From a bacterium (GTDB lineage: Bacteria; Sumerlaeota; Sumerlaeia; SLMS01), in NCBI GenBank assembly GCA_016125005.1, contig WGMQ01000068.1, forward strand, positions 1-40,238: DNA of 40,238 nucleotides, read 5' to 3'. The translations under genes and the position numbers were made by a program. Numbering within the stretch: the first letter of the stretch is position 1; each line of letters opens with the position of its first letter. Positions 12,988 to 38,609 of this stretch are shown here, piece after piece. Below the pieces are notes generated by a model, which worked only from the letters and a program-made list of their open reading frames with translations, did no database searches and had not been told where the DNA came from.

Positions 12988-13045
12988 CTGCTTTTCCTCA
13001 TCTGGTCGCGCCCTGTCGGGGCGAATTTTGTCGAAACGTTGTACA

Positions 13046-13068: not shown

Positions 13069-13103
13069 GGAAATCAATGAGGTTTCGCGAAGGGGTGCCC
13101 GCA

Positions 13104-14108
13104 ATGCAGCTATTGTCGCTTGGATATGTCGGCGTCAGCACGTCGAACGCGGACGATTGGCGCAATTACGGCGTTGGCCTGCTCGGCCTGCAACTCGTCG
13201 ACAGATCGGCCGGCACTCTGGCATTCAGGATGGACGACAGAAGCCAGCGCATCCATGTCGAACAGGACGGCCGTGAAGGCTGCCGCTATTTCGGCTGGGA
13301 GGTCGCCGGCGCCGCCGCGCTCGATGAGGCCGGCGCGGAACTGGAAGCACACGGCATCGCCGTGGAACGCGGAGATGCGGCCCTGCTGGCGCAACGCCGA
13401 GTCTCCGATCTCATCGGCTTCCATGACCCGCTCGGCAACCGGGTGGAACTCTTCTGGGGAGCCGAAGTCGCCGATACCCCATTCAGTCCGGGCCGCTCCA
13501 TTTCGGGCTTTCGCACCGGGCCGATGGGGATGGGGCATATCGTGCTTACCGCCGAGCGCATCGACGCCGTCATTCCGTTTTATCGGGATATCCTGGGGTT
13601 TCGCCTGAGCGACTTCGCATTGAAGCCGTTCAAGGCATATTTCTTCCACGTCAATCCGCGCCATCACAGCCTCGCTTTCGTCGAGACCGGGCGAAAGGGC
13701 GTGCACCATCTCATGATGGAACTGATGAGTCTCGACGATGTCGGGCAGGGATACGACCTCGCGCAGGCGGACCCGGAGATCATCGGCGCGACGCTGGGCC
13801 GCCACACCAATGACTTCATGACGTCGTTCTACTCCTGGACGCCCTCGAAATTCATGGTCGAGTATGGCTGGGGCGGCCGTGAGATCGACCCGGCCACATG
13901 GCGGCCGGAGGAACTGGCTCACGGGCCGAGCCTGTGGGGTCACGACCGCACCTGGCTCGACGAGCACGGCCGCGCAATGGCGCGCGATCTTCGGCTCGGG
14001 GCGGCGCAAGCCGGCATGCGCGAGCCGGTGCAGGTTCTGGATGGGAACTACAATGTCATGTCGGGGCATTGCCCGTGGTGGGATGGCGTCAAGAAGGCAG
14101 CCGGCTGA
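13104..14108 (+). CDS. Type I extradiol ring-cleavage dioxygenase (VOC superfamily)
   Basis: A 334-residue Fe(II) dioxygenase of the 2,3-dihydroxybiphenyl 1,2-dioxygenase/catechol 2,3-dioxygenase class, made of two double-module VOC domains. The C-terminal domain carries the 2-His-1-Glu iron facial triad: H145 (MGHIVL), H202 (VHHLMME) and E253 (FMVEYGWGG); the segment LGRHTNDFMTSFYSWTPS is the classic extradiol fingerprint. It opens a catecholic ring next to a hydroxyl. The start at 13104 matches the family N-terminus (LLSLGYVGV); an upstream in-frame ATG at 13059 is less likely. It faces the FAH-family hydrolase across a divergent promoter. Confidence 0.94.
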   Translation: MQLLSLGYVGVSTSNADDWRNYGVGLLGLQLVDRSAGTLAFRMDDRSQRIHVEQDGREGCRYFGWEVAGAAALDEAGAELEAHGIAVERGDAALLAQRRVSDLIGFHDPLGNRVELFWGAEVADTPFSPGRSISGFRTGPMGMGHIVLTAERIDAVIPFYRDILGFRLSDFALKPFKAYFFHVNPRHHSLAFVETGRKGVHHLMMELMSLDDVGQGYDLAQADPEIIGATLGRHTNDFMTSFYSWTPSKFMVEYGWGGREIDPATWRPEELAHGPSLWGHDRTWLDEHGRAMARDLRLGAAQAGMREPVQVLDGNYNVMSGHCPWWDGVKKAAG

Positions 14109-15951: not shown

Positions 15952-17025
15952 TCACCTGGCGGCGGCAAGCGGTGTTTCCGCCTTTCGGCCCTCGACTGCC
16001 GGGATGATCCGCGAACCGAAAATCTCTATCGACCGCCGCACGAAGGCCGGATCCCTTCCGCTGAAGGTCAGGTTGACCACATCGATGCCCCGGTCGCGAA
16101 TGGCGCCGACCTGCTTGATGCACTGGTCGAGCGTTCCGGCGATGAGCTGGTGGTTTTCGAGCAGGTCTTCGATGGAGGCCTTCGAGAATGCCTCGTAGTT
16201 CGGGCGATGCGTGCTGTAGGTTTCGTCATTGTCGCCGGGTCGGTCGGTGATCGACCGCGAGAAATGGTCCTTGCGCTTCTCGAACTGATGCGCGATCTGC
16301 TCATGCGCTTCGTCGAAGCTGTCGCCGATCGCGACATCGGCGGTGATCGAGAATTTCCCTTCTCCCTTTCGGTCCGGATTGTGGCGATCCCACTGGCGCT
16401 TGTACTCGGCCATGTGCGAATCGGAGACCTTTCGGGTGAGCAGCGCCGTGGCGCAGTACATTCCGAGCCGCGCGGCCTTCTCCATGGAGGAATCGCTCGC
16501 GGCGCTGAGCCAGAACGGCGGATAGGGCTTCTGGGTCGCCTCCGGAATGGCGAAGGCCTGGCTGCCCTTCCACCATGGGGTGTCGTAGTCGACCCTCTCT
16601 CCGCCCAGCAGGCGGCGAATGATGTCGAAGCCGGCGTCGAACATGTCGACGGTTGCGCTTCTGTCTGTGCCGAACGCGGCCTGCTCGGTGCGGACCTGGC
16701 CCCGCCCGAAGCCCACGACGAGGCGTCCGCCCGTGAGCGCGTCGAGCATCCGGATTTCCTGGGCCAGGCGATAGGGATGATGGAACGGAATGAGATTGAC
16801 GAGGTTGCCGAGCTTCAGCCTCTTCGTGCGCTGGCTCAGCGCTGCGATCATCAGGTTGGGCGAGGGGAGCAGCGAAAAATCGGGATTGCCATGGTGCTCG
16901 GCGAAAAACCAGCCGTCGAAGTTCACCTGCTCGGCCATGGCGACCGTGTCGAGGTAGTCGGCATAGAGCCCGGCATGCGATTGATCCTTGTGCTCCGGCA
17001 GCAGCGTGAAGCCGTAATATTCCAT
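15952..17025 (-). CDS. Luciferase-like (LLM class) flavin-dependent monooxygenase
   Basis: A 357-residue bacterial-luciferase-family oxygenase. Family features are the N-terminal strand YYGFTLLPEH, FDGWFFAEHHG, LGNLVNLIPFHHPYRLAQEIRMLD and GGRLVVGFGRGQ. Such enzymes use reduced FMN supplied by a separate reductase, here probably the flavin reductase at 14182-14694, to hydroxylate or oxygenolytically open substrates including N-heterocycles. The ATG at 17025 follows GGGAGGGA. The paired 19-bp motif begins 30 bp upstream of the ATG, so expression is probably controlled by the divergently encoded IclR regulator. Confidence 0.92.
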   Translation of the reverse strand: MEYYGFTLLPEHKDQSHAGLYADYLDTVAMAEQVNFDGWFFAEHHGNPDFSLLPSPNLMIAALSQRTKRLKLGNLVNLIPFHHPYRLAQEIRMLDALTGGRLVVGFGRGQVRTEQAAFGTDRSATVDMFDAGFDIIRRLLGGERVDYDTPWWKGSQAFAIPEATQKPYPPFWLSAASDSSMEKAARLGMYCATALLTRKVSDSHMAEYKRQWDRHNPDRKGEGKFSITADVAIGDSFDEAHEQIAHQFEKRKDHFSRSITDRPGDNDETYSTHRPNYEAFSKASIEDLLENHQLIAGTLDQCIKQVGAIRDRGIDVVNLTFSGRDPAFVRRSIEIFGSRIIPAVEGRKAETPLAAAR

Positions 17026-21713: not shown

Positions 21714-23048
21714 TCAATCGGCGAGAATGTAGTGCTGCGACTCGTGGGCGCGTTGCCGGATGTCCGCCAGGTCGATCCCGACCAGTTTGCCGTCCTTCTT
21801 CAGGATGCGGCCTTCCACCATCACCGTGTCGACATTGCCCGGGTGACAGCCGATCACGACGGCCGCCACGGGGTCGATCACCGGCAAGAGGTTGATTTCG
21901 CTCAGGCGGATCATGATGATGTCGGCGGATTTGCCCGGGGCGATGGTGCCGATCTTGTGCAGCATTCCGTTGGCGCGCGCCCCTTCCACGGTTGCGAACT
22001 GGAGCACGTCGCGGGTCGTGATCGTCTCGGGCGGGTTGACCGCCCTGGAGTGCCCGCCGCCGACATAGGAGCGGTAATAGGCCAGGGCCGAGCGCATCTG
22101 GGTGAACATGTCGGCGCTGCCGAGGGTTTCGGTGTCGCCGCTCAGGCTCGGCCGCACGCCCAGGGCCAGCAACCGGTCGAGCGGGATGTCTCCAAGGCCC
22201 GGCGAGTTCATCTCGACATAGACGCCCAGCGAGACGGTCACGCCATTGTCAGCAATCATCTGCAACTCGTCGTCGGCGCTGGAATTGCAGTGAATGAAGG
22301 TGATGTCGTCGCCCAGCATCCCGTATTTGTTCATCTCGGCGATGCCGCGCTTTGCGCCGTTGAAGGCGAACGCGCCCATATGGATGCTCGAACGAATGCC
22401 GAGATCGCGTGCGAGCTTCAGGTCCGATTGCCAGGTTTCGGTCGACGCAATCTCCGGACCGCGCCCCGCCATCACCAGCGTCAGCAGCGAATCGTCCGAA
22501 CTGAACCGTTCCCGGCGGAGCCGCGCTATGTCGGCGGGGTGCGGCCGCACGCTGTTCGGCGTTCGCGAGCCGGCTTCGGTCAGCGACCAGCCATGCCCGA
22601 ACACCGCGCGGATGCCGGATTGCTGGAGCGCGTCGACCGCGGCGTCCGAATGTTCCGGAGTATTCTGGATCTGCGACCAGTCGAGCATGGTCGTGACCCC
22701 GCCATCGATCGCGCTCAAGGCGCCGAGATAGTTGCCGATCCACACGTCCTCGGGTCGATAGCGCGGACCCCGCTTGAACATCATTTCCTGGAAATAGGCG
22801 AACGGGGGGTGGATGTCGGCGCAGCGATGGCGCACGCAGGTCTGCCATGTATGGCGATGGGTATCGACAAAGCCCGGCATGACGATCATGTCGCTTGCGT
22901 CGATCACGCGCGCATCCGCCGCGTCGATTTGCGGGGCGACGTGAACGATCTTGCCATCTTCGATGAGAATCTGCCCCGCCGAGATCCCGCCCGGCGCATT
23001 CTCCATGGTGATCAGATAGCCGCACTTGATAAGCTGACGCTCGCTCAC
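21714..23048 (-). CDS. Amidohydrolase-family deaminase/hydrolase (TrzA/MtaD type)
   Basis: A 444-residue metal-dependent hydrolase of the cytosine deaminase/atrazine chlorohydrolase/SAH deaminase group. The metal site is visible: H64 and H66 in GFVDTHRHTWQ, a third His in RSSIHMGAF, a fourth in ITFIHCNSS and the catalytic Asp in SLSGDTETLG. The C-terminal GTIAPGKSADIIMI is the usual composite-domain return. The start is a GTG at 23048 after GGGAGGAA; the open frame continues far upstream but only antisense to the binding-protein gene. It is divergent from the second ABC importer, from a region carrying operator pair 3. It may deaminate or hydrolyse an N-heterocycle. Confidence 0.88.
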   Translation of the reverse strand: MSERQLIKCGYLITMENAPGGISAGQILIEDGKIVHVAPQIDAADARVIDASDMIVMPGFVDTHRHTWQTCVRHRCADIHPPFAYFQEMMFKRGPRYRPEDVWIGNYLGALSAIDGGVTTMLDWSQIQNTPEHSDAAVDALQQSGIRAVFGHGWSLTEAGSRTPNSVRPHPADIARLRRERFSSDDSLLTLVMAGRGPEIASTETWQSDLKLARDLGIRSSIHMGAFAFNGAKRGIAEMNKYGMLGDDITFIHCNSSADDELQMIADNGVTVSLGVYVEMNSPGLGDIPLDRLLALGVRPSLSGDTETLGSADMFTQMRSALAYYRSYVGGGHSRAVNPPETITTRDVLQFATVEGARANGMLHKIGTIAPGKSADIIMIRLSEINLLPVIDPVAAVVIGCHPGNVDTVMVEGRILKKDGKLVGIDLADIRQRAHESQHYILAD

Positions 23049-23124
23049 GCTGAATTCCTCCCTGTTTTCCGACGTTGCCGGTTCGCCGCAGCCGCCATCG
23101 CTTCGACGCTGCCGGCAGAATAAC

Positions 23125-23169
23125 TTCACATACGCAGTAGTTGCAACAGTTTCACATATGTAGTAGTTG
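23125..23169 (+). promoter_or_regulatory. Operator pair 3 (19-bp motif, two copies)
   Basis: TTCACATACGCAGTAGTTG (23125-23143) and TTCACATATGTAGTAGTTG (23151-23169) are direct repeats with a 26-bp period, upstream of the second ABC importer and divergent from the amidohydrolase. TTGCAA (23141-23146) between the copies could be a -35 box. These two copies are the closest to each other of the six found (two mismatches). Confidence 0.68.
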
Positions 23170-23249
23170 TTCGCGGGGATGGAGACGGTCGGCTTGTTGG
23201 CGGCCGTTCGAGGGGACCCGAATTGCAATCCGAGGGAGGAGTGAAGATC

Positions 23250-24299
23250 ATGCGACACAGTTTTTTTTCGCGTCGGCTGACAATCGCCATTGCAGGCGCA
23301 TGTCTTTCCGTGCTGCCGGCGATGGCGGGCCTGGCGCACGCCGACGATGCCGATTTGAAGGCGCTCTATGAAGCGGCGAAGTCGGCGGGCGAGGACACCG
23401 TTTCCGTCTACATGCCGGCTGCCGCTTCGAACCAGCCATTGTTCGACATCTTCCAGGCCGAGTTCCCTGGCATCACCATCACGCCGACCGATATCTTCGG
23501 AGCGGCAATGTTCGCCCGCCTCGAAGCGGAGGTTGCGACCGGAAAGCCCCAGGCCGACGTGCTGTCTTCGGGCGATCTCGACTTCCCGACGCTCTTTTCC
23601 AAGGGCTACCTTGAGTCGTTCGCGCCGGCTGGCGTCGCAGATCTTTCCAAGGGTTATGTCGGAACGGACAACAGCTGGTATGTATGGACGCTTGTGCCTG
23701 TCGGGCCGGGCATCAATACCGACATGATCAGCGGCGACGGGCCGACCAGCTGGGCGGATCTCCTTGATCCCGCGCTCAAGGGCAAGATGGCGATGACCAG
23801 CGCCACGACGCTGACCACGTCGCCGATGGCGATGGTTCAGGCCCTCGCCGGCGGCGCCATCGACGATGCATGGATCAGCGCATTCGCGGCCCAGAAGCCG
23901 TCGATCGGCAAGGGAACTTCCGCGACAATGCTGTCGGTCGCCCAGGGCCAGTTTGCCGTGGCGCCATTCATGGCGCTTACCGTGCTGAACGCCGCCAAGG
24001 CGAAGGGCGCGCCCGTCAAGTTCAACTATCTCAAGGAAGGCAATGCCGTCGTGCCGCTCTCGGTGGGATTGATGAAGGGCGCTCCGCATCCCAATGCGGC
24101 GAAGCTGTTCATTTCATGGCTGTTGTCTCCGAGTGGCGCAAAGATCGCCGCAGAAAAGCTCGGCTCGGTCGGCACCATGCCCGGCTCCCCGGAACCTGAA
24201 GGCATGCCGGCCAACCACAAGCTGCTCGTGCTGACGGGAGACGCCATGCAGGCGGCGCTGAAGGATTGGGTGGCAGGTCAGGCCGCGAAGTTCGAGTAG
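23250..24299 (+). CDS. ABC transporter binding protein, family 1 (Fe3+/polyamine/thiamine type)
   Basis: A 349-residue periplasmic binding protein of the extracellular solute-binding family 1. The signal peptide (RRLTIAIAGACLSVLPAMA, then GLAHA) probably ends near residue 30. The body has the family's pattern: VSVYMPAAASNQPLFDIFQ, PQADVLSSGDLD, TSWADLLDPALKGKMAM and a C-terminal HPNAAKLFISWLLSPSGAKI. The start at 23250 follows GGGAGGAG. It serves the fused permease and ATPase downstream. Although the family is often annotated as an iron or spermidine binder, the setting in a catabolic island suggests an organic substrate of the neighbouring oxygenases. Confidence 0.88.
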   Translation: MRHSFFSRRLTIAIAGACLSVLPAMAGLAHADDADLKALYEAAKSAGEDTVSVYMPAAASNQPLFDIFQAEFPGITITPTDIFGAAMFARLEAEVATGKPQADVLSSGDLDFPTLFSKGYLESFAPAGVADLSKGYVGTDNSWYVWTLVPVGPGINTDMISGDGPTSWADLLDPALKGKMAMTSATTLTTSPMAMVQALAGGAIDDAWISAFAAQKPSIGKGTSATMLSVAQGQFAVAPFMALTVLNAAKAKGAPVKFNYLKEGNAVVPLSVGLMKGAPHPNAAKLFISWLLSPSGAKIAAEKLGSVGTMPGSPEPEGMPANHKLLVLTGDAMQAALKDWVAGQAAKFE

Positions 24300-29184: not shown

Positions 29185-30027
29185 TCAGAACCGTGTGGGA
29201 AGATACTCGCCGCGACTGTTGGACGGTGTTCGGTAGCCTTTTGTCTTGCGCAGATGGGTGGGGGAACTTCCGTAGAGCTCCTTGATATGGCGTGAAAAGT
29301 GGTAAGGGGAGTTGTAGCCACAGGCAAAGGCGATTTCCCCGCTGCTGAGCGATGTGTTCAACAGCAGGTGCGTGGCCCGTGCGGCGCGTTGTTTCCATAA
29401 ATAGCGGATCGGCGTCGTACCGACGAAACGGCGGAAGGCGCCTACCAGATGGTTTGGCGTCATGGCGGCAATCTCGGCCAGTTGCGAAAGCGTGACCGCC
29501 TCTGCGAATTTCTCGTCGAGATGACGCCTCACACGATAAACGCCGGAGGGCGTGCTGCCGATGATCTCACTCTGGCGACTTTCGAACTGGTAGGTCGCAA
29601 GCAGAGCCCTTCCCAGCGCGCTGCGCAACTCATTGTGTGCGGTCGTCGAGGTCGTGCCCAGATCCAGCCCCATTGCGTGCAGCCGCTTGAGCTGGTCCGA
29701 TGCCGGCAGTTTGGCTGACAGGCTCTGCTCGCTTCTGTTTGAAGCGGTGATTGGCGTAGGCTCGGCCTCGCACCAGGCGACATCGGTGTTGATGTGTTTC
29801 TGATAGCTGAAATGGAGCGAATTGCGGTTGGTCATCACCGCACATTCACCGCCGACCAGACTTAAAGTCGTGTCATCTGCGGTTACGCGGACCGCGCCCC
29901 GATAGACGAGCATGAAATACACAAAAGGACCCAGGAGCGGGCCATAGCTCCCGCCATTGGCATAGGTGGTGCGTCCGAAACTGAAGCCGCGTCCGGCCTC
30001 AATGATCCCGCCGATAGAGACTGTCAT
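29185..30027 (-). CDS. AraC-family transcriptional regulator
   Basis: A 280-residue regulator with a cupin-like N-terminal half (about 1-120) and a C-terminal AraC DNA-binding domain with both helix-turn-helix units: AVTLSQLAEIAAMTPNHLVGAF near 190-215 and LSSGEIAFACGYNSPYHFSRH near 235-260, ending with LYGSSPTHLRK. It is transcribed divergently from the N-demethylase-like operon across 239 bp, so it is probably that operon's activator, responding to a purine-like effector. The effector cannot be read from the N-terminal half. Confidence 0.9.
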   Translation of the reverse strand: MTVSIGGIIEAGRGFSFGRTTYANGGSYGPLLGPFVYFMLVYRGAVRVTADDTTLSLVGGECAVMTNRNSLHFSYQKHINTDVAWCEAEPTPITASNRSEQSLSAKLPASDQLKRLHAMGLDLGTTSTTAHNELRSALGRALLATYQFESRQSEIIGSTPSGVYRVRRHLDEKFAEAVTLSQLAEIAAMTPNHLVGAFRRFVGTTPIRYLWKQRAARATHLLLNTSLSSGEIAFACGYNSPYHFSRHIKELYGSSPTHLRKTKGYRTPSNSRGEYLPTRF

Positions 30028-30266: not shown

Positions 30267-31142
30267 GTGAACAGGACGGAAAGCGAACCTTCTCGCCATC
30301 TCTGGCATCCGGTCGCAACCGTGGCCGAGGTCAACGGCACATTGAACACGATGCTGATGGGCGACGCCGTGACGGTGAGGGTCGCCGGTGATCATTCAGG
30401 CATTGTCGTCTTTCACGGTGATCGCAAACTGCCGGTCATCGTTCGGTTCGGCTTCATATGGACATCGCTCGGCAGCCCCCCTTCCGATCTTTTCGAGATC
30501 CCGGAAGCGGCTGAAGCCGACCGGCGCAATGTCTCGGCAGGGCCGGTAGGGGTCGCCACCTCTGCGCCCCGGGCGATCGAGAACTTTCTCGACATGGCGC
30601 ATTTTCCCTTTGTTCACACCGATATTCTCGGCGCCGAGCCACATACCGAAGTCAAGGATTACGACGTCGAGTTGAAGGAAACGGAGAATGAAATCCTTGC
30701 GACGCGCTGTCGATTTTTCCAGCCGATGGCAGCGCTCAGCGCTGCTGGCGGCATGGAGGTCGACTATGTCTACCGGGTGCCGCATCCGTTCTGCGCGGTG
30801 CTTTACAAGTCCTCTGGCGCAGACGCGCGACGCATGGATGTGATTGCAATTTTTGCGCAGCCCACGAGTGAAGAGAGCATTCGGGCCCATCTGTTCCTGT
30901 CCATGATCGACACCACCCACACCGATAGCGAAATGCGGCGTTTCCAGCAGCTTATCTTCGGACAGGACAAGCCGATCCTCGAGAACCAGCGGCCGAGGCG
31001 CCTGCCGCTCGATCCTCGTTCCGAAACGCCTATCCGTGCGGACCTATCGAGCATCGTTTACCGGCGCTGGCTGTCTTCCAGGAATATCGGCTACGGCGTC
31101 ATTCCGGCTGCCGGTCAGTCAGGGAGCGCAGTCCATGGCTGA
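30267..31142 (+). CDS. ndmC: NdmC-like Rieske-type oxygenase subunit lacking the Rieske cluster
   Basis: A 291-residue protein with the mononuclear non-heme iron domain of ring-hydroxylating/demethylating Rieske oxygenases but no Rieske [2Fe-2S] ligands. The catalytic motif is N106-F-L-D109-M-A-H112-F-P-F-V-H117, and a distal iron-ligand candidate is D234 (FGQDKPILENQ). Residues 11-68 keep both edges of a Rieske domain (HLWHPVATV and RFGFIWTSLG), but the cluster-binding loops between them are gone. P. putida CBB5 NdmC, the 7-methylxanthine N7-demethylase subunit, has this same lack and works only with NdmD and NdmE. The start is a GTG at 30267, 8 bases after GGAG. The end overlaps the next gene by 8 bp. 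Function as an N-demethylase is inferred. Confidence 0.8.
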   Translation: MNRTESEPSRHLWHPVATVAEVNGTLNTMLMGDAVTVRVAGDHSGIVVFHGDRKLPVIVRFGFIWTSLGSPPSDLFEIPEAAEADRRNVSAGPVGVATSAPRAIENFLDMAHFPFVHTDILGAEPHTEVKDYDVELKETENEILATRCRFFQPMAALSAAGGMEVDYVYRVPHPFCAVLYKSSGADARRMDVIAIFAQPTSEESIRAHLFLSMIDTTHTDSEMRRFQQLIFGQDKPILENQRPRRLPLDPRSETPIRADLSSIVYRRWLSSRNIGYGVIPAAGQSGSAVHG

Positions 31143-32823
31143 GCTTTCCGGCTGGTTTCCCGTCGCCGCATCCCACGACCTGCCGCTTCGGCACGTTTTC
31201 CAGGCGAAGCTTTTCGATCGCGAGATGGCGATCTGGCGGGCGGATGACGGCAATGTCAATGTCTGGGAGAACCGCTGCCTGCATCGTGGCGTGCGCCTCA
31301 GCATCGGCGTCAATGAAGGCCTCGAACTGAAGTGCCAGTATCACGGCTGGCGTTACGCCAACAAGACTGCGGGATGCATCTATATTCCGGCTCATCCCGC
31401 CAACGCGCCGGCCCGGCAGATCACCAACCGCACCTATCCGGCTGTCGAACGGTTCGGATTGGTCTGGACCACGCTTGAAAAGGACCTGTCTTTCGATGTC
31501 GTGTGGCCCGATGGCGACTGGTCGGTCCTGCGCGCGATCCCCGTGCATGCGGGACCGGATGCAGTCGCCGCCGCGCTTTGCAAGGTGCTCGGCGCCGTTC
31601 CGCGCCCTGACATCCATGCTTTCGCCTATGCGCTTTCCACGCTCTGCGAGGCGCCGGTGCTGGCGCTGTTGCAGCCGCAGGATTCCGGCAAGACGGTGAT
31701 CAGGTGCCTGCTGTCCGGCGGAGCGCAAATGGAGAGGCGACTTGCAGTGCAAGCCAATGCCACTCTCACCCGGTTTCGCAATATTGTCGAAGCAGATGCA
31801 AGCCTTGAGCCCGTTGAGAGCGAGCCGGTTTTCGAGCCGGTGGCGTCGGAACTGGCCGAGCCGCCGGCCGCCTCGCCGGACGCGATGACTGTACGGGTCG
31901 AGCGCAAATGGCAGGTTGCAGAAGGCATTACCGGTCTCACCGTGGTCCCGACCACAGGAAACCTGCCCGCCTTCCAGCCCGGCGCCCATATCGACGTGAC
32001 ATTGCCGACAGGGGTGAAGCGCCAATATTCCATCACCGACGGACCCGGTACCTGGAAAAGCTGGACCATCGCCGTCAAGAACGAACCGAACTCGCGCGGC
32101 GGTTCGCGCTTCATTGCCGAAACGCTTCGGCAAGGCGATCTCCTGTCGGTCTCGGAACCGCGCAACAATTTTCCGCTTCGCCGCGACGCCGCCGAAACGC
32201 TGCTGATTGCCGGCGGCATCGGCGTAACACCGCTCCTGGCAATGGCAAGAGCGCTTGCCGCAGTGCGGAGCGGCTTCCGCCTGCATGTCTTCGCCCGAAG
32301 TGAAACCCATGTTCCCCTGGCCGACCAATTGGATGGGCTCTTGCCCGCCGTGACCCTTCATCTGGCGCTCGATCCGGCACAGGTCGCACAACGGTTGGCC
32401 GAAGTGATCGGACCGCATGCGCCCGGACGCCAGATCTATGCCTGCGGGCCGGGAGGGATGACGCAATCGGTTCTGGCGATCGCGGAGGAACTGGGCTGGC
32501 CGGAAGAAGCCGTCCACTTCGAGAACTTCAACAATGACCATGTCATCGACACGAGTTCGGCATTTGCGGTCGATCTGGCGCGCTCGGCGCTGTCGATCGA
32601 TGTTCCCGCCGGTCAAAGCCTGCTTTCGGTCCTGCGCGCACACGGCGTCGAACTGCCGTCTGCCTGCGAGCGCGGCGCTTGCGGCACCTGCAGGGCCGAG
32701 GTGATCGAGGGAACGCCGGATCATCAGGACGCCTATCTGTCCAGGGGCGAACGAGCGTCCAACCGGCACATCATCACCTGCGTCTCCAGATCGCGGACGC
32801 CAAGACTGGTGCTCGATCTGTGA
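31135..32823 (+). CDS. ndmD: NdmD-like Rieske domain-reductase fusion
   Basis: A 562-residue three-part electron-transfer protein. Residues 1-118 form a Rieske domain with C48-L-H50 and C67-Q-Y-H70. Residues about 120-215 are a linker domain of unknown role. Residues about 250-470 are a vanillate-demethylase-reductase-type FMN/NAD module with RQYS at 296-299, GGIGVTP at 360-366 and ACGPGGM at 436-442. Residues 480-562 form a plant-type ferredoxin with C511, C516, C519 and C549. This order is that of NdmD, which carries the Rieske cluster missing from NdmC and moves electrons from NADH to the catalytic iron. ATG 31135 follows GGGAG and overlaps the upstream gene; the stop overlaps the next start (TGATG). 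Confidence 0.85.
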   Translation: MAELSGWFPVAASHDLPLRHVFQAKLFDREMAIWRADDGNVNVWENRCLHRGVRLSIGVNEGLELKCQYHGWRYANKTAGCIYIPAHPANAPARQITNRTYPAVERFGLVWTTLEKDLSFDVVWPDGDWSVLRAIPVHAGPDAVAAALCKVLGAVPRPDIHAFAYALSTLCEAPVLALLQPQDSGKTVIRCLLSGGAQMERRLAVQANATLTRFRNIVEADASLEPVESEPVFEPVASELAEPPAASPDAMTVRVERKWQVAEGITGLTVVPTTGNLPAFQPGAHIDVTLPTGVKRQYSITDGPGTWKSWTIAVKNEPNSRGGSRFIAETLRQGDLLSVSEPRNNFPLRRDAAETLLIAGGIGVTPLLAMARALAAVRSGFRLHVFARSETHVPLADQLDGLLPAVTLHLALDPAQVAQRLAEVIGPHAPGRQIYACGPGGMTQSVLAIAEELGWPEEAVHFENFNNDHVIDTSSAFAVDLARSALSIDVPAGQSLLSVLRAHGVELPSACERGACGTCRAEVIEGTPDHQDAYLSRGERASNRHIITCVSRSRTPRLVLDL

Positions 32824-33500
32824 TGAGGCTCTTCGATTACGAATACTCGGCCGAATGCTACAAGGTGCGGCTTCTGCTTTCGATCCTCGAGATCGACCAC
32901 GAGATCGTGCCGGTCGATGTCCATCCCGGCCGCGAAAATGAGAGCGCGGAATTTCTGGCGCTGAACGTGTTGGGCGAAGTGCCGGTGCTCGTGAGCGATG
33001 AGCTGATCCTGCGCGGTGCAAACGCCATTCTGGTCTGGCTTTCGCGGCGGTTTGATCCCGAAGCCAAATGGCTGCCAAATGAGCCAATGCCCGCCGCTGT
33101 TTGCCAGGGCTGGCTAACCATCGCAGATCGACTGGCCGCCGGCGTGGGGACGGCGCGAATGACGCTTTCCCGCGGTGAGACCCTGCCCGACAAGCGCGCG
33201 ACAAGCGAGGCCCACCGGCTGCTGCGAGCCGTCGATGAGCATCTCTGGTTCGCCGAACGTCGCGGCGATGACTGGCTTGTGCCCTTGCCTCATCCGACGC
33301 TCGCGGAGATCGCCTGCTTTCCCGATATCGCCCTGTGCGAAGAGGCAGGCGTCTCGCGCATTGATTATCCGGCTATCCGAAGATGGATGGATCGCGTGCG
33401 CCGCATCGAGCGCTTCACCCTGATGTCGGGGATATTCCCGGCTTCGCCTCCTGCACCGCGCACGCCCGTCAATCAAACACAAACAGAGTCGCTGTCATGA
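32823..33500 (+). CDS. ndmE: NdmE-like glutathione S-transferase-family protein
   Basis: A 225-residue GST-fold protein with a thioredoxin-like N-terminal half (1-75) and an all-helical C-terminal half. The cis-proline loop GEVPVLV (51-57) is kept, but the glutathione gamma-glutamyl-binding Glu/Gln-Ser pair is replaced by G65-A66 (LRGANAILVWLS), so normal glutathione chemistry is doubtful. In P. putida CBB5 the GST-like NdmE is needed as a structural partner in the NdmCDE complex, and this gene's place, size and residue loss fit that. Its start overlaps the NdmD-like stop, and its own stop overlaps the next start (ATGA). Confidence 0.75.
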   Translation: MRLFDYEYSAECYKVRLLLSILEIDHEIVPVDVHPGRENESAEFLALNVLGEVPVLVSDELILRGANAILVWLSRRFDPEAKWLPNEPMPAAVCQGWLTIADRLAAGVGTARMTLSRGETLPDKRATSEAHRLLRAVDEHLWFAERRGDDWLVPLPHPTLAEIACFPDIALCEEAGVSRIDYPAIRRWMDRVRRIERFTLMSGIFPASPPAPRTPVNQTQTESLS

Positions 33501-34651
33501 CCATATCCGCCGCTTCGACCATTGAGGACACACCCCCCTTGGACCCCGTTACAATTCGGCGACGCGGCGTCGGCCTTCGCCTTTGCGACAGGCAGCGCAG
33601 CGCCGGAGGCTATACGCTGTTTACGCCGCAAACCGGCAACGGCGCCGTCTATCTGATCGATATCGACGGCGAGGTGGCGCACCAGTGGCAAATGCCGGTT
33701 CGTCCCGGCAGGGAAGGCGTGCTGCTGCCGAACGGCAATCTCGGCTATAATGGCAGTCACGCGACCTCGCTGGCGCTCTATCCCGCCTGGGATCTGTGGC
33801 ATGGCGGCGATTTCTATGAGGTCACGCCCGACGGCGAAATCGTCTGGCGGCATGAGGACCCTCGCCACCACCATGACGCCCAATGGCTCGCCAATGGCCA
33901 CCTGCTCTACACCGTGTGCGAGGCCCTGCCGCCCGAGATGGCCGCCCGCATCTGTGGCGGCGATGAACGCAAGGACGCAGCTGACGGCATCATCCAGGGC
34001 GACACGGTTGTCGAAGTGGACCGCGACGGCAAGATTGTCTGGCAATGGCGGTGCTGGGAGCATCTGGCTCCCGAGGATTTTCCGATCCACGATATCTTCG
34101 ACCGCCGCCACTGGCCCCTGATCAACGGGCTCCACGCCACCGATGACGGGCTCGTGCTGATGAGCCTGCGCGTCACCTCGGGAATCATCGCGGTCCGCCG
34201 CGACACAGGAGAGGTTGTGTGGAAGATCGGGCCGGATGTTCTGGCGCAGCAGCATTCTCCCATCATGACGCCTGCCGGCACCGTGCTTGCCTTTGACAAT
34301 GGCAATCTGCGCAAGGGGGCGACCTCTCCGCATTCGCGGATCGTGGAGGTCGAACCGCAGACCGGCAAGCTTGTCTGGCAATATGCTGACGAGAACGCGC
34401 CCGCCTTCTTCACGCCCTATATGGGCGGCTGCCAATTGCTCGAAAACGGCAATGTCTTCGTCTGCGAATCCGCATTCGGCCGCCTGTTCGAGGTCACCCG
34501 GTCCGGCGAGACAGTCTGGGAATATGTGATCCCCTTCTTCGACGCCTATCCGCCCGAAGTCCGCAAGTACACGGACGGCCAGCACAATGGTTCGTTCCGC
34601 GCCTACCGCTACCCGGAAAGCCGGATTCCATGGCTTGCCGGTCGCAACTGA
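33497..34651 (+). CDS. Arylsulfotransferase-like beta-propeller protein
   Basis: A 384-residue protein of the ASST/PQQ-propeller type. Repeated blades end in phrases such as DGEIVWRHEDP, DGKIVWQWRCW, TGEVVWKIGP, TGKLVWQYAD and SGETVWEYVI, so five to six blades are readable. Prominent histidines resemble the arylsulfate sulfotransferase set: H126 (HHHDAQWLANGH), H213 (INGLHATDDG) and H253 (QQHSPIMTPAG). Unlike periplasmic ASST there is no signal peptide, so it is probably cytoplasmic. It sits between the demethylase-like trio and a purine-type transporter with coupled starts. Its role there is unknown; sulfotransfer should not be assumed. Confidence 0.75.
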   Translation: MTISAASTIEDTPPLDPVTIRRRGVGLRLCDRQRSAGGYTLFTPQTGNGAVYLIDIDGEVAHQWQMPVRPGREGVLLPNGNLGYNGSHATSLALYPAWDLWHGGDFYEVTPDGEIVWRHEDPRHHHDAQWLANGHLLYTVCEALPPEMAARICGGDERKDAADGIIQGDTVVEVDRDGKIVWQWRCWEHLAPEDFPIHDIFDRRHWPLINGLHATDDGLVLMSLRVTSGIIAVRRDTGEVVWKIGPDVLAQQHSPIMTPAGTVLAFDNGNLRKGATSPHSRIVEVEPQTGKLVWQYADENAPAFFTPYMGGCQLLENGNVFVCESAFGRLFEVTRSGETVWEYVIPFFDAYPPEVRKYTDGQHNGSFRAYRYPESRIPWLAGRN

Positions 34652-34698
34652 CAATTTTCCGCTTCCGCCCGAACCCAACCCGAACAGGAGTTCACATC

Positions 34699-35655
34699 AT
34701 GGTATCCAAAATCGGTATCGCCTTCACCGTCCTCTCCCTCGGCCTGATATCCTCGGCGCCGGCCCTTGCCCAGGACGAAACCGAAGTTCGCCTGCTCATG
34801 AACTGGTTTCCCCAGGCCAATCAGGGCGGTTACTGGCAGGCACAATTGGACGACCAGGACGGTGATGGCGTCAAGATCACCACGCTTCCCGGCGGCCCGC
34901 GCATCCAGACAATCCCGCAGGTGGTCTCGGGGGAAGCCGAATTCGGTATCGGCTATGCTGACGACATCATCCGCGCCCGCCAGATGGGGGCGCCCGTCAA
35001 GGCCGTCTACGCGGCGCTCGATCATGCCCCCTATGATCTGGTCTATCATCCCGACCAGGGCATCAAGGGGGTCGAGGATCTTGCCGGCCGCACCGTCGCC
35101 GTCTCGCTTGGCGCGGCCTATTGGGACTGGACCAAGCTCACCTATGGCATCGAGACGAAGGACATTCCCGTGTCCGGCGACATGTCCCTGTTCGCCAATG
35201 ACCTGGCGATGGTTCAGCAGGGGCTTTACCTGTTCCTTCCCTTCCGGATGAAGGAGGCCGGCATTGCGCATGAGCAGTTCCGCATCGCCGATCTCGGCTA
35301 TCGGCCCTACGAAGTTCTGTTCACGACCGATGCGATGATTGCCGATCACCCCGACACCGTTCGCGCAACGATTGCCGCGGTGAAGAAGGGCTGGCAGGAA
35401 TTCATGGCTGACCCCGATCCCGTCAGCACGAAGAGCCTCGCGGTCAATCAGCAGATTTCGCCTGCAGCCAACGCCAATGCGATCGCGTTGATGAAGTCCA
35501 GCGGCCTGCTGCCGGAGGATTCGAAGCTGTTTGGCTGTATGGACAGCGCGCGCTGGGAGGAACTGGCCAAGCAGATGATGGCAATCAAGGTCGTTCCCGA
35601 AGACTTTGATGTCAAAGCCGCCTATGATGTCAGCTTTGTGAGCGGCTGCGAATGA
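34699..35655 (+). CDS. NMT1/ThiY-type ABC transporter binding protein
   Basis: A 318-residue periplasmic binding protein of the NMT1/THI5-like family, whose members bind flat ligands such as pyrimidine precursors, riboflavin, nitrate or sulfonates. The signal peptide (VSKIGIAFTVLSLGLISSAP, then ALAQ) ends near residue 25. The mature start LLMNWFPQANQGGYWQA is the family hallmark, and EAEFGIGYADDIIRARQMG and GVEDLAGRTVAVSLG follow. The start at 34699 follows CAGGAG. It lies between the demethylase-like genes and guanine deaminase, so a purine or methylpurine ligand is the natural guess. The stop overlaps the ATPase start. Confidence 0.88.
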   Translation: MVSKIGIAFTVLSLGLISSAPALAQDETEVRLLMNWFPQANQGGYWQAQLDDQDGDGVKITTLPGGPRIQTIPQVVSGEAEFGIGYADDIIRARQMGAPVKAVYAALDHAPYDLVYHPDQGIKGVEDLAGRTVAVSLGAAYWDWTKLTYGIETKDIPVSGDMSLFANDLAMVQQGLYLFLPFRMKEAGIAHEQFRIADLGYRPYEVLFTTDAMIADHPDTVRATIAAVKKGWQEFMADPDPVSTKSLAVNQQISPAANANAIALMKSSGLLPEDSKLFGCMDSARWEELAKQMMAIKVVPEDFDVKAAYDVSFVSGCE

Positions 35656-36473
35656 TGCCGGGCATTCCGCTTCAGGAAAGAGGCGAAAAGGCTGCTGCGG
35701 CCGCCGCATCCGCGCCCCGGCGCGGTCGCGGCGGCGCGGTTTCCATCGCGCTGTCGGGCGTTTCCAAGCGCTTTGACGATATCGTGGCGCTCGAGCCCGT
35801 CGATCTCACGATCAAGGGCGGCTCCTTCCTTGCGATCGTCGGCCCTTCCGGCTGCGGCAAGTCAACGCTGTTGCGCATCATCGCCGGACTGATCGCGCCA
35901 TCCTCGGGAGCGCTGACGCTGCCAGGCCACGCCGTCGGCGCGTTCGTCTTTCAGGAAGCCGCGCTTCTGCCTTGGCGCAATGTGCAGGCCAATGCCGAAT
36001 TGGTCATGGAACTTGAGAACATTCCAAAGGCCGAACGCGTGAAAAGGGCCCGTCACGCTCTGGCGCAGGTTGGGCTTGAAGGGTTCGAGCGCCGCTATCC
36101 GCACCAGCTTTCCGGCGGCATGAAGATGCGACTGTCGCTGGCCCGCGCCATGGCGCTGCGGCCGGATTTCCTTTTGCTGGACGAGCCGCTGGCGGCAGTC
36201 GACGAACTGACCCGCGATCAGCTGCAGGATGAATTGCTCGCTCTGTGCCGCAGTTCCGGCGTCACGGCGGTGCTCGTCACCCACAATGTCTATGAAGCGG
36301 TGTATCTGGCGGATCAGGTCGTGGTGATGAGCGCCCGGCCTGGCCGCGTCATCGACCGCTTCGATGTTCCTTTCGGCGACGATCGCGCCCCGGAACTCAG
36401 ATCGTCACCGGAATTCGTGTCGCTTGCCGCAGCGGTTTCGGCGTCGCTGCGCAAGGGGAGAGTCGATGACTGA
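35652..36473 (+). CDS. ABC transporter ATP-binding protein (SsuB/TauB/ThiZ type)
   Basis: A 273-residue ATPase with Walker A GPSGCGKSTLLRI, signature LSGGMKMRLSLARAM, Walker B FLLLDEPLAAVD and LVTHNVYEAVYLAD. The first 30 residues are an Ala/Arg-rich extension before the domain begins at VSIALSGVSKRF; a later start is possible but the ATG at 35652 is coupled to the upstream stop (ATGATG). It powers the permease encoded next, whose start it overlaps by 8 bp. Confidence 0.9.
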   Translation: MMPGIPLQERGEKAAAAAASAPRRGRGGAVSIALSGVSKRFDDIVALEPVDLTIKGGSFLAIVGPSGCGKSTLLRIIAGLIAPSSGALTLPGHAVGAFVFQEAALLPWRNVQANAELVMELENIPKAERVKRARHALAQVGLEGFERRYPHQLSGGMKMRLSLARAMALRPDFLLLDEPLAAVDELTRDQLQDELLALCRSSGVTAVLVTHNVYEAVYLADQVVVMSARPGRVIDRFDVPFGDDRAPELRSSPEFVSLAAAVSASLRKGRVDD

Positions 36474-37260
36474 CCGCCTTGCCTTTCGCCGCACCGCCCT
36501 CAACATTGCCGCGCCCTTGTTCGTGGCCGTGGCATTCGTCGGGTTGTGGTACGTCCTCTCCGTAACGGTCTATGCCGACAAGGCGTTCCTCCTGCCGGGA
36601 CCGGTTGCCGTCATCAAGGCGATGCATCGCGATTTCGGGACGATCCTTGCTGCCACCCTTGTGACTTTCAAGGAAGCCTTCAGCGGCTATGCCGCAGCAA
36701 CCCTCCTGGGGATCTCGGCGGCCGCGTTGATGAGCCAGTCGCGACTTCTGGAGCGCAGCTTCTACCCCTATGCCGTGTTGATGCAGACTGTTCCGGTCGT
36801 CGCAGTCGCCCCGCTGATCGTGCTCTGGTTCGGCTATGGCGAAACCTCGGTCATCATCGTCAGCGCGATCATCTCGCTGTTTCCGATCATCAACAACACG
36901 CTTCTGGGGCTGCAATCCGCGTCGTCGAGCCTTGTCGAATTGTTCGCCATGCACAAGGCCGGCAGGCTGACCGCCTTCCGCAAGCTCCGCCTGCCCGGCG
37001 CCGTGCCCAACATCATCGCCGGTCTCAGGATTTCGGCCGGATTGTCGGTGGTGGGCGCGATCGTTGGCGAGTTTCTCATCGGATCGGGCAATTCCCGCGG
37101 CGGCCTCGGCGTCCAGATCATCTTCGCGCAAGGGCGCATGGACACGCCATTGCTGTTTGCCGAGGTAATTTTCGCCACCTTTCTCGGTTTCGGCTTCTTC
37201 ATCGCCGTCTCGCTTGTCGGGCGATTGCTTATCGGCCATTGGCACGAGTCGGCCCGGTGA
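36466..37260 (+). CDS. ABC transporter permease (SsuC/TauC/ThiX type)
   Basis: A 264-residue inner-membrane permease with one BPD_transp_1 domain and about six hydrophobic segments. The coupling loop region ELFAMHKAGRLTAFRKLRLP (about residues 160-180) is typical, as is VPVVAVAPLIVLWFGYG. The start at 36466 overlaps the ATPase stop, and its stop overlaps a GTG start of the deaminase (GTGA at 37257-37260). It probably works as a homodimer. Confidence 0.9.
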   Translation: MTDRLAFRRTALNIAAPLFVAVAFVGLWYVLSVTVYADKAFLLPGPVAVIKAMHRDFGTILAATLVTFKEAFSGYAAATLLGISAAALMSQSRLLERSFYPYAVLMQTVPVVAVAPLIVLWFGYGETSVIIVSAIISLFPIINNTLLGLQSASSSLVELFAMHKAGRLTAFRKLRLPGAVPNIIAGLRISAGLSVVGAIVGEFLIGSGNSRGGLGVQIIFAQGRMDTPLLFAEVIFATFLGFGFFIAVSLVGRLLIGHWHESAR

Positions 37261-38609
37261 ACGTTCGCGGCAAGACCCTGAGAGGCAATTTCATTCATGC
37301 GCCGCAAGCCTCCAGCGTGGAGGCGCTGACGGATTGCCTGCTTGCCGTCGACGGAAGTGGCCGGATCGCTGCGATCTACCCGGTTGACCATGCGGAGCGG
37401 GAGCCTGCCGAAAACGCCGCCCGTCAAGCTGGCAATCTGGTCGAGTTCGGCGAAGCGGACTTCCTTGTTCCCGGCCTGATCGATCTGCATGTCCACGCGC
37501 CGCAATATCCGCAGCTGGGGCTCGCGCTGGACGAGCCGCTCGAGGTCTGGCTCGAAAAATACACCTTTCCGCTCGAGTCCCGCTACGCCGATCCCGAATT
37601 CGCGCGGCAATGCTATTCGCAACTCGTCGACGACTTGCTGCGAAACGGCACCACCACTGCAGCCTATTTCGGGACAGTACATCAGGAAGCCACGCGCATT
37701 CTCGCCGATATATGCATCGAGAAGGGACAACGCGCCCTGGTCGGCAAGGTCGCGATGGACAACCCGGATTCATGCCCTGATGACTACCGCGATCGATCTG
37801 CGGAAGAATCTGTGAGCGGAACGCGCGCCCTGATCGACTATATCCGGGGCCATCCCGGCAATCGGGAGAACCGTGTCCTGCCGGTCGTGACGCCGCGTTT
37901 CATCCCGTCATGCACGGATGCGGCGCTCGCTGGCCTGGGTGCGCTTGCAGCCGAATGCGGTTGCCACATCCAGACGCATTGCTCTGAGAGCGATTGGGCG
38001 CACGCCCATGTCCTCGATCGCCACGGCATGACGGACGCTGCCAGCCTGGACCGGTTCCGGTTGCTGGGCCGCAGGACGATCCTGGCGCATGCCACGAGGC
38101 TGGAGGAGGCGGATTGGAAACGGCTTTGCGTGCGTGGCTCCGCCATCGCCCATTGTCCGCTTTCCAACGCATATTTCGGCGATGCCGTATTTCCGCTTCG
38201 CGCGGCCTTGGCAAGGGGCGTCCATGTCGGGCTCGGCACCGATATTTCCGGTGGGCCGACAGCATCTGTTCTTGAGAGTGCGCGCATGGCGATGGCAGCC
38301 TCACGAATCCTGCAGTCCGGCGCGGATCCGGATCGCGCGCCCGGGGATCGAAACCGCCCCAACTCCGCCATCGATTTCCAGACCGCATTCCATCTGGCTA
38401 CCAGCGCCGGGGGGACGGCGCTGGACCTGCCCATCGGCCGGTTTGAGGTTGGCTATCGTTTCGACGCTCTGCGCATCGATGCTGCCGCCCCTGACGGCAC
38501 AATACGACTGTTCGGAACGACCGATGCGATCTCTGTCCTGCAGAAGATCGTCCACACCGCCTCGCGACCCAACATCGCCGACGTCTGGGTGGATGGCGTA
38601 AGGGTCTGA
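37257..38609 (+). CDS. guaD: Guanine deaminase
   Basis: A 450-residue zinc aminohydrolase that matches guanine deaminase (guanine to xanthine plus ammonia) throughout. Zinc ligands are H78 and H80 (LIDLHVHAPQYPQLG), H241 (IQTHCSES), H278 (TILAHATRL) and D329 (LGTDISGG). Substrate-contact motifs known from the family are also kept: Q83, R214-F215 (VTPRFIPSC) and the catalytic Glu of HCSE. The start is a GTG at 37257 overlapping the permease stop. In this operon it could deaminate an imported methylguanine before demethylation, or guanine after it. Confidence 0.9.
   Translation: MNVRGKTLRGNFIHAPQASSVEALTDCLLAVDGSGRIAAIYPVDHAEREPAENAARQAGNLVEFGEADFLVPGLIDLHVHAPQYPQLGLALDEPLEVWLEKYTFPLESRYADPEFARQCYSQLVDDLLRNGTTTAAYFGTVHQEATRILADICIEKGQRALVGKVAMDNPDSCPDDYRDRSAEESVSGTRALIDYIRGHPGNRENRVLPVVTPRFIPSCTDAALAGLGALAAECGCHIQTHCSESDWAHAHVLDRHGMTDAASLDRFRLLGRRTILAHATRLEEADWKRLCVRGSAIAHCPLSNAYFGDAVFPLRAALARGVHVGLGTDISGGPTASVLESARMAMAASRILQSGADPDRAPGDRNRPNSAIDFQTAFHLATSAGGTALDLPIGRFEVGYRFDALRIDAAAPDGTIRLFGTTDAISVLQKIVHTASRPNIADVWVDGVRV

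What the first reader, a model, noticed from the sequence alone, without database searches (positions are those of the whole stretch)
30267..38609. Predicted methylguanine salvage operon: importer, guanine deaminase and N7-demethylase together
The demethylase-like trio shares an unbroken, tightly coupled operon with an NMT1-type importer and a guanine deaminase with a full active site. Known caffeine pathways do not need guanine deaminase. A route of uptake of 7-methylguanine, deamination to 7-methylxanthine, and N7-demethylation to xanthine would explain every catalytic member. 7-methylguanine is a natural breakdown product of RNA caps, tRNA and alkylated DNA, so this could be a widespread but undescribed salvage route rather than a plant-alkaloid pathway. 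Alternatives are another N-methylated purine or demethylation before deamination.
Basis: inference. Interest (0 to 1): 0.93.

Follow-up and report, generated by a model that had tools for sequence, protein, structure and literature searches.

The report
Likely methylated-guanine salvage operon
This stretch of bacterial DNA holds eight tightly packed genes, including relatives of a caffeine-demethylating enzyme set, an importer and a guanine deaminase, that likely recover nitrogen from methylated guanine left over from RNA, a route that, if confirmed, would give a job to many unexplained relatives of the caffeine enzymes.

Summary
The operon is real: eight + strand genes at 30267-38609, with overlaps of 1-8 bases and one 47-base gap. 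The oxygenase belongs to the NdmC family (43% identity to authentic NdmC) but to another clade. In related genomes this family keeps meeting purine genes. A guanine deaminase lies within 10 kb of it in 11 of 59 surveyed genomes (0.38 expected) and within 5 kb downstream in 35 of the 80 best loci. One actinobacterial run holds xanthine dehydrogenase, guanine deaminase and C-D-E together. Xanthine dehydrogenase is over cut-off in 34 of 35 genomes checked, which speaks against a mere xanthine-hydroxylase role. So coupled demethylation and deamination of an N-methylated guanine is the best reading. 7-methylguanine itself is untested, 20 of the 21 nearest relatives lack a deaminase within 10 kb, and the NMT1/propeller module was not found with C-D-E elsewhere. 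By composition the contig does not fit its assigned genome, so host gene content cannot be used. New variant of a known kind; activity wholly untested.

The parts
29185..30027 (-). AraC-family regulator, divergent from the operon, 239 bases from its first gene; likely the regulator
   Evidence: HTH_18 75.1 bits; role inferred from position
30267..31142 (+). C: NdmC-like non-haem iron oxygenase subunit without a Rieske domain (291 aa, GTG start)
   Evidence: VanA_C 85.7 bits; no CxH...CxxH, metal motif at 105-117 and 233; 42.8% over 278 residues to P. putida NdmC P0128; AlphaFold2 pLDDT 86.9, Foldseek best hits Rieske oxygenases GxtA/SxtT, then NdmA/NdmB
31135..32823 (+). D: NdmD-like reductase with an N-terminal Rieske domain, FMN/NAD reductase and plant-type ferredoxin (562 aa)
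   Evidence: Rieske 67.8 and Fer2 51.3 bits; PDB match to NdmD ferredoxin domain 6icm_D E 5.4e-15; motifs; 52% to S. meliloti D, 31% to K. pneumoniae plasmid D
32823..33500 (+). E: NdmE-like glutathione S-transferase-fold protein (225 aa)
   Evidence: GST_N 44.6 bits; 50% to S. meliloti E, 43% to K. pneumoniae plasmid E
33497..34651 (+). Arylsulfotransferase (ASST)-like beta-propeller, no signal peptide evident by eye; role unknown, sits beside transporters elsewhere
   Evidence: PF05935 81.5, PF14269 54.8 bits; next to a transporter gene in 10 of 10 contexts examined
34699..35655 (+). NMT1/THI5-type ABC substrate-binding protein
   Evidence: PF09084 100.9 bits; best plasmid relative 53%, Variovorax, beside an ASST-like gene
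35652..36473 (+). ABC transporter ATPase (taurine/nitrate/sulfonate group)
   Evidence: ABC_tran 102.9 bits; best NCBIfam matches are taurine, SaoA, phosphonate and nitrate types, the 25 shown all under cut-off
36466..37260 (+). ABC transporter permease
   Evidence: BPD_transp_1 96.9 bits
37257..38609 (+). Guanine deaminase of the amidohydrolase (human cypin/GDA) class, GTG start
   Evidence: TIGR02967 400.1 over cut-off 375.4; human GDA 2uz9 E 1.4e-74; 62% to the C-linked guaD of R. tumorigenes, 30-34% to the guaD copies in L150, L153 and L009

Best explanation
The operon encodes an NdmCDE-type split Rieske oxygenase set, an NMT1-type importer and a guanine deaminase, and would likely take up an N-methylated guanine, remove its methyl group by NADH-driven oxidation and deaminate it to xanthine. 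Shown here: the genes, their domains and motifs, their packing, and repeated neighbourhood of such oxygenase sets with purine deaminases, importers and urate-pathway genes in other genomes. Inferred: electrons pass from NADH through FMN and the ferredoxin domain of D to the Rieske domain of D and on to the iron site of C, with E holding the complex together, as described for NdmCDE; the methyl leaves as formaldehyde; GuaD removes the 2-amino group. The order is open: deamination first (7-methylguanine to 7-methylxanthine to xanthine) fits the known NdmCDE substrate, demethylation first (methylguanine to guanine to xanthine) fits strict guanine deaminases. 7-methylguanine is the best single guess for the substrate; 1-methyl- and N2-methylguanine are not excluded. 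The ASST-like protein is left without a role.
For: Architecture: C without Rieske, D with an extra Rieske, GST-like E; PMC4408171 (passages) calls NdmCDE the first reported case of such a split. Tree of 74 rows: C proteins form one group apart from three full-length Rieske oxygenases incl. HpxD (93/94), with authentic NdmC nested inside. Linkage: guaD within 10 kb of C in 11 of 59 genomes, 0.38 expected, from 397 genomes drawn evenly from one order; 35 of 80 loci have guaD on the same strand within 5 kb downstream. A divergent guaD class is the linked one: 11 of 24 copies within 16 kb of C against 2 of 46 of the other class (Fisher p 5.7e-5; distance chosen after seeing the data, relatedness ignored); 12 genomes carry both classes. 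Nocardioides L009: xdh (TIGR02965 950 > 849.5), guanine deaminase (NF006679 477.5 > 351; TIGR02967 374.5, just under its 375.4), C, D, E in one run. L150 and L153: HIUase in one, urate oxidase in the other, with guaD and BMP ABC genes beside C-D-E. Other C loci carry adenosine or 8-oxoguanine deaminases over cut-off. Mo-XDH over cut-off in 34 of 35 such genomes. Rat cypin, same deaminase class, accepts the guanine analogues acyclovir and valacyclovir (PMC11694556 passages; that they are N9-substituted is recalled).
Against: No activity is known to me for any member outside NdmC, and NdmCDE is reported as specific for 7-methylxanthine (PMC10380055 passage). Of the 21 genomes nearest to the window's C, 1 has a guaD within 10 kb and one more at 12.6 kb; of 14 stretches read around such relatives, all have C, D and E and 12 show no deaminase to my reference set. 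The window's binding protein and ASST-like gene were not found with C-D-E elsewhere. No formaldehyde-handling gene is among the operon's family hits, unlike frmAB beside ndm in CBB5. A cytidine-deaminase-type guanine deaminase rejects 1- and 9-methylguanine (PMC11651626 passage), so deamination of a methylated base is not a given. Nearest folds of C are GxtA/SxtT (hydroxylases, by recall), ahead of NdmA. Residues flanking the iron-site motifs differ from NdmC (S-A-P-R against S-G-L-R; QDKPIL against QDLMIL).
Confidence: 0.5

Rival explanations
1. Molybdenum-free xanthine or guanine oxidation: the importer brings guanine, GuaD makes xanthine, and C-D-E hydroxylates xanthine to urate, doing the job of HpxDE.
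For: HpxDE is involved in oxidising hypoxanthine and xanthine in Klebsiella, and xanthine riboswitches precede sets of NMT1/tauA-type ABC genes, Rieske and 2-oxoglutarate dioxygenases and guanine deaminases, which the authors read as purine oxidation (PMC7373994 passages). Nearest folds of C, GxtA and SxtT, are hydroxylases by recall.
Against: HpxD has its own Rieske domain (by recall and length; not scanned here) and is 27% identical to C, outside the C family. Mo-XDH over cut-off in 34 of 35 genomes with C-type clusters and in the same gene run in L009. Two C genes side by side in at least 6 of 59 genomes and in S. meliloti fit position-specific demethylases better. No xanthine riboswitch reached its gathering score in the window or in 14 loci searched; I did not check that this family is in the library.
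Confidence: 0.17
2. Plant methylxanthine use with plain guanine as a side branch: C-D-E demethylates 7-methylxanthine or another alkaloid as in P. putida, and GuaD only adds ordinary guanine to the same xanthine pool.
For: The only characterised member of the family that I found, NdmCDE, acts on 7-methylxanthine (PMC4408171 and PMC10380055 passages); C is 42.8% identical to NdmC.
Against: The window C is not in the NdmC clade; no second Rieske-type oxygenase lies in the window's operon; a divergent guaD class exists beside a second guaD in 12 genomes, and in 5 of the 12 the divergent copy is within 10 kb of C, which a generic guanine branch would not need.
Confidence: 0.15
3. The substrate is not a purine base: another N-methylated heterocycle (pterin, guanidino or sulfated compound) is imported, which would give the ASST-like gene a place.
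For: The ASST-like gene is unexplained by any purine route and sits beside varied transporters in 10 contexts: 6 three-gene ABC systems, 3 uracil-xanthine permeases, 1 tripartite tricarboxylate binding protein.
Against: GuaD is over the guanine-deaminase cut-off with the full motif set; 3 of the 10 ASST partners are themselves annotated uracil-xanthine permeases; neighbours of C-D-E elsewhere are often purine genes.
Confidence: 0.08

Closest known systems
NdmCDE, 7-methylxanthine N7-demethylase complex of Pseudomonas putida CBB5
   Same: Rieske-less oxygenase C, reductase D with an extra fused Rieske domain, GST-like E, in one operon; C 42.8% identical to NdmC
   Different: Other clade of the family; no second oxygenase and no formaldehyde gene in the operon; C-D-E followed by an ASST-like gene, an NMT1 ABC system and a guanine deaminase
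Orphan ndmCDE homologues of Sinorhizobium, Mesorhizobium and others, noted as 'unknown function' (PMC4408171 passages)
   Same: Window C is in the same clade as S. meliloti C2 (57%); D 52%, E 50%
   Different: In S. meliloti pSymA they sit beside a BMP-type ABC system, with no deaminase annotated in the 25 kb stretch read
Rhizobial clusters of C, Rieske protein and GST with guaD and BMP ABC (for example R. tumorigenes pRt1078)
   Same: C 52%, GuaD 62%; oxygenase plus guanine deaminase plus importer
   Different: Short Rieske protein with no reductase annotated in the stretch, extra amidohydrolases, BMP-type importer; clade sister to NdmC
HpxDE, molybdenum-independent xanthine hydroxylase of Klebsiella and Pantoea
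   Same: Rieske-type oxygenase in purine use
   Different: HpxD is 27% identical and stands beside a PDR/VanB-type reductase with no GST in the stretch read
Human/rat guanine deaminase (cypin)
   Same: Same amidohydrolase class, human 2uz9 E 1.4e-74; motifs of the class found
   Different: Operon-borne, divergent bacterial class

Membership tests
NdmCDE-type oxygenase | Oxygenase subunit without a Rieske cluster but with the iron-site motif | tested here: met
   No CxH...CxxH in C; D109, H112, H117 and D234 invariant in 32 aligned rows
NdmCDE-type oxygenase | Reductase with an extra N-terminal Rieske domain plus FMN, NAD and plant-type ferredoxin parts | tested here: met
   Rieske and Fer2 families and all four motifs
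NdmCDE-type oxygenase | GST-like third subunit in the same operon | tested here: met
   GST_N families; 50% to S. meliloti E
NdmCDE-type oxygenase | C groups with NdmC apart from full-length Rieske oxygenases | tested here: met
   71 C rows against 3 outgroups, support 93/94; outgroup branches are long
NdmC proper (7-methylxanthine N7-demethylase) | C falls inside the NdmC clade | tested here: not met
   Window is in a separate 23-row clade (94/91); NdmC is in a 13-row clade sister to the 24-row rhizobial clade (99/97)
NdmC proper (7-methylxanthine N7-demethylase) | Demethylates 7-methylxanthine | not testable with these tools
   Needs protein
HpxDE xanthine hydroxylase | Oxygenase carries its own Rieske domain (by recall) | tested here: not met
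   In the window the Rieske domain is only in D
Guanine deaminase (TIGR02967) | Score over the equivalog cut-off and active-site motifs | tested here: met
   400.1 > 375.4; motifs found
Guanine deaminase (TIGR02967) | Deaminates guanine, and here a methylguanine | not testable with these tools
   Needs protein
NMT1-type purine importer of xanthine-riboswitch operons | Xanthine riboswitch (NMT1 motif RNA) upstream | tested here: inconclusive
   No Rfam family at gathering score in the window; presence of this family in the library not checked
Arylsulfotransferase (ASST) | Pfam score over gathering cut-off | tested here: met
   PF05935 81.5 > 24.2
Arylsulfotransferase (ASST) | Catalytic histidine/arginine set of AssT | not tested
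   Residues not aligned to a characterised AssT

The most novel reading that the evidence does not exclude
Bacteria run a dedicated salvage route for N-methylguanines shed by RNA and alkylated DNA: a split Rieske demethylase (C-D-E) paired with its own second guanine deaminase and a purine importer turns 7-methylguanine or a positional isomer into xanthine, and this, not caffeine, is the main job of the many orphan ndmCDE homologues.
Probability: 0.33. Interest if true: 0.8.

Novelty: new variant of a known kind. Interest (0 to 1): 0.55.

Why it matters
Homologues of the caffeine demethylase set were reported as clusters of unknown function (PMC4408171 passages), and the family is large: 59 of 397 genomes of one order hold a C, and 4914 proteins match it at E 0.001 (that list can include full-length Rieske oxygenases). 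A methylguanine route would give these sets a common job in everyday RNA turnover in place of a rare plant alkaloid, would name an enzyme for a base with no bacterial catabolic route found in the open-access papers searched, and is directly testable with one purified complex and five bases. Even if the rival (molybdenum-free purine hydroxylation) wins, it would assign function to the same orphan family.

Tried and rejected
Host metabolism as evidence: the assigned genome lacks Mo hydroxylase PF02738 (28 of 40 genomes of the phylum have it) but has an OHCU decarboxylase on a contig with HIUase-, allantoinase-, cupin- and M20-like genes (partly by eye), which would have favoured the hydroxylase rival. 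I dropped this because the window's tetranucleotide profile lies 0.505-0.594 from the centroid of 19 stretches of that genome (their own values 0.157-0.290), and nearest to rhizobial loci among those held, a set rich in rhizobia. Also, two window genes, C (E 1e-30) and 15952-17025 (E 1e-40), are absent from the 39 other genomes of the phylum.

Xanthine riboswitch control: nothing at gathering score in the window, and none of that family in 14 loci; the single weak hit in the operon, snoZ206 at E 0.7, is taken as chance. Promoter scan: 0 found; 11 terminator-like sites against 7.0 expected, not used. Label error of mine: a 375-aa gene of the K. pneumoniae plasmid cluster was called NdmB in my scripts; it has no Rieske motif by eye and no NCBIfam match, and the label is not used. 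Pocket-level comparison with NdmA was not possible without coordinates. A DNA-level source for the contig was not sought.

Papers: the searches listed no title or abstract on a methylguanine demethylation route or on ndmCDE-guaD linkage; most listed papers were not opened, and subscription papers are not held. Passages only were read of PMC4408171, PMC8055839, PMC7373994, PMC11694556, PMC11651626, PMC9299380, PMC4947994, PMC10380055 and PMC11855574. The last two name both NdmCDE and guanine deaminase, but the latter only in their reference lists.

Full report
What is there. The + strand from 30267 to 38609 carries eight genes: C 30267-31142, D 31135-32823, E 32823-33500, an arylsulfotransferase-like gene 33497-34651, and the ABC genes 34699-35655, 35652-36473 and 36466-37260, ending with a guanine deaminase 37257-38609. 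All neighbours overlap by 1-8 bases except one 47-base gap before the binding protein. An AraC-type regulator (29185-30027) is divergent. Pfam and NCBIfam give VanA_C without Rieske for C, Rieske plus ferredoxin for D, GST for E, ASST for the fourth gene, NMT1 for the binding protein and guanine deaminase over its curated cut-off, 400.1 against 375.4. Motif checks agree.

Whose contig. The window is listed in a genome of a phylum with 40 held genomes. C is in none of the 39 others at E 1e-30, nor is a luciferase-like gene 14 kb away at E 1e-40. The tetranucleotide profile of every part of the window tested lies at 0.505-0.594 from that genome's centroid, while 19 stretches of the genome lie at 0.157-0.290. 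The nearest of the loci held, a set rich in rhizobia, are rhizobial, 0.29-0.33. The contig is therefore probably a stray, perhaps from an alphaproteobacterium, and I do not use that genome's gene content as evidence.

Family of the oxygenase. Among solved structures C matches SxtT/GxtA, NdmA and NdmB. An AlphaFold2 model (pLDDT 86.9) gives the same order by fold: GxtA/SxtT from E 4.3e-18, NdmA 1.6e-13, NdmB 4.6e-12. A homology search returned 4914 proteins at E 0.001. A second search found authentic NdmC (UniRef M1EY73, P0128): 42.8% identity over 278 residues to the window C, against 27% for HpxD. In a 74-row tree the C proteins form one group against three full-length Rieske oxygenases (93/94; the outgroup branches are very long). 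NdmC and relatives (13 rows) are sister to a rhizobial clade of 24 rows (99/97). The window lies in a third clade of 23 rows (94/91) with S. meliloti, Aminobacter, Devosia, Nocardioides and Pseudonocardia proteins. It is thus an NdmCDE-type set, not NdmC proper.

Neighbourhoods. In the 80 best loci of at least 553, 35 of 80 have a guanine deaminase of 45% or more identity (to the window's or the R. tumorigenes copy) on the same strand within 5 kb downstream of C. These are rhizobial, Kaistia, Mesorhizobium and acetic-acid-bacteria loci and some kin; the 10 of the 35 that I put in the tree all fall in the rhizobial clade. For a less biased view, 397 genomes drawn evenly from the order of Methylobrevis were searched: 59 hold a C at E 1e-60 or better. 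Of these 59, 57 hold a guaD match and 11 have it within 10 kb of a C, where 0.38 would be expected from genome sizes (related genomes are not independent, and copies on separate contigs count as unlinked). The guaD copies fall into two score classes, 46 above 515 bits and 24 below 430 (two of them partial); 11 of the 24 and 2 of the 46 are within 16 kb of a C (p 5.7e-5, distance chosen after seeing the data). Twelve genomes hold both classes, and in 5 of these 12 the divergent copy is within 10 kb of C. The window's GuaD is 62% identical to a C-linked copy and 30-34% to the copies in L150, L153 and L009.

Independent settings. Nocardioides L009 has xanthine dehydrogenase, a different guanine deaminase, C, D and E in one run. 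L150 holds an HIUase, guaD, BMP ABC genes and C-D-E; L153 holds a urate oxidase, guaD, BMP ABC genes and C-D-E. An acidimicrobial and a rhodobacteral locus carry an adenosine deaminase over cut-off near C, and a Gluconobacter locus an 8-oxoguanine deaminase over cut-off. Niallia, a Bacillota, has guaD, an NCS2-like permease (by eye) and a full-length Rieske oxygenase with a catalytic domain 36% identical to C side by side. So oxygenases of this family keep company with purine deaminases; 47 of the 80 loci also hold a BMP-type binding protein, a type that by recall imports purine nucleosides.

Results against. All 21 genomes whose C is nearest to the window's (E below 1e-100) have D beside C in the short loci returned, but only 1 of 21 has guaD within 10 kb, one more at 12.6 kb. 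Of 14 stretches fetched around such relatives, all 14 hold C, D and E, and 12 show no deaminase to my reference set; two shown in detail, L142 and L146, have C-D-E beside a divergent dehydrogenase, Ldh_2 by Pfam in L142. The window's binding protein has no match in the 80 loci or the 14 stretches, and the ASST-like gene is in 1 of 397 genomes of the order. The exact combination in the window is therefore local; what recurs is oxygenase plus purine deaminase plus some importer.

The overlooked gene. Of 12 plasmid records with an ASST-like gene at 47% identity or more, I looked at nine contexts plus one genome; H188 and H192 were not fetched and H193 was fetched without annotation and not read. 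All ten have a transporter gene next door: six three-gene ABC systems (one matched by the window's binding protein at 53%, one annotated NrtA/SsuA type, the rest typed by eye or not typed), three annotated uracil-xanthine permeases and one tripartite tricarboxylate binding protein. Variovorax has the same order as the window: ASST, SBP, ATPase, permease. The pairing with uracil-xanthine permeases hints that the importer handles a purine- or pyrimidine-like ring, but no step is assigned to this protein.

Hydroxylase or demethylase. Xanthine riboswitch operons combine NMT1/tauA-type ABC genes, Rieske or 2-oxoglutarate dioxygenases and guanine deaminases, and the authors read the oxygenases as purine oxidisers (PMC7373994, passages). 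That rival is serious. Against it, Mo-xanthine dehydrogenase is over cut-off in 34 of 35 genomes with C-type clusters that I checked of the 80, it stands in the same run as C-D-E in L009, at least 6 of 59 genomes hold two C genes side by side, and the one characterised Rieske-less member demethylates.

Which base, which order. Nothing here fixes the methyl position. Rat cypin, of the window's GuaD class, deaminates the guanine analogues acyclovir and valacyclovir (PMC11694556, passages; N9-substituted by recall), while a guanine deaminase of another superfamily rejects 1- and 9-methylguanine (PMC11651626, passage). There is no evidence that free 7-methylguanine is made into nucleotides, and in part it is oxidised or demethylated (PMC9299380, passage). 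That 7-methylguanine is common in tRNA, caps and alkylated DNA is recalled knowledge. I commit to demethylation plus deamination of an N-methylated guanine, 7-methylguanine as best guess, at 0.5.

Verdict. A real, coherent operon; a new variant of the NdmCDE kind whose family shows recurrent, above-chance linkage to guanine deaminase.

Noticed in passing
window 1-40238: The contig does not match the composition of its assigned genome (tetranucleotide distance 0.505-0.594 against 0.157-0.290 for 19 stretches of that genome) and is nearest to rhizobial loci among those held; probably mis-binned.
   Followed up: yes
window 510-11951 (+): Sugar or polyol use set: periplasmic sugar-binding protein, sugar ABC ATPase, Sugar-bind regulator, glycerol-3-phosphate dehydrogenase-like DAO, FGGY kinase, choline-dehydrogenase-like GMC enzyme.
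   Followed up: no
window 12004-14108: Fumarylacetoacetate hydrolase-like gene (12004-13104, -) next to an extradiol dioxygenase (13059-14108, +), suggesting aromatic ring cleavage.
   Followed up: no
window 21714-24089 (-): 791-aa frame whose residues 350-790 match a PRK08204 amidohydrolase (548 bits over cut-off 391); the first 350 residues have no match in that search.
   Followed up: no
L096 7719-14373 (Klebsiella plasmid), also L051, L053, L055, L057: Cluster of C-D-E with an isopenicillin-N-synthase-like oxygenase, in L096, L051, L053 and L055 also a 355-aa Rieske oxygenase and a 375-aa protein without NCBIfam match; related to but not the ndmABCDE cluster.
   Followed up: partly
L092 11056-12867, L150, L153 and six genomes: Two C paralogues side by side next to one D and E, suggesting two positional specificities for one electron donor.
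   Followed up: partly
L176 3000-15000 and L108 7790-12858: ASST-like gene plus a three-gene ABC system under a divergent LacI-like regulator (by eye); a TPP riboswitch precedes a separate NMT1-like ABC system at L176 4962-5068.
   Followed up: no
L156 (assigned genome, contig C56): Urate/ureide gene set: fused allantoinase- and OHCU-decarboxylase-like frame, HIUase-like, cupin and M20 amidase genes (partly by eye).
   Followed up: partly
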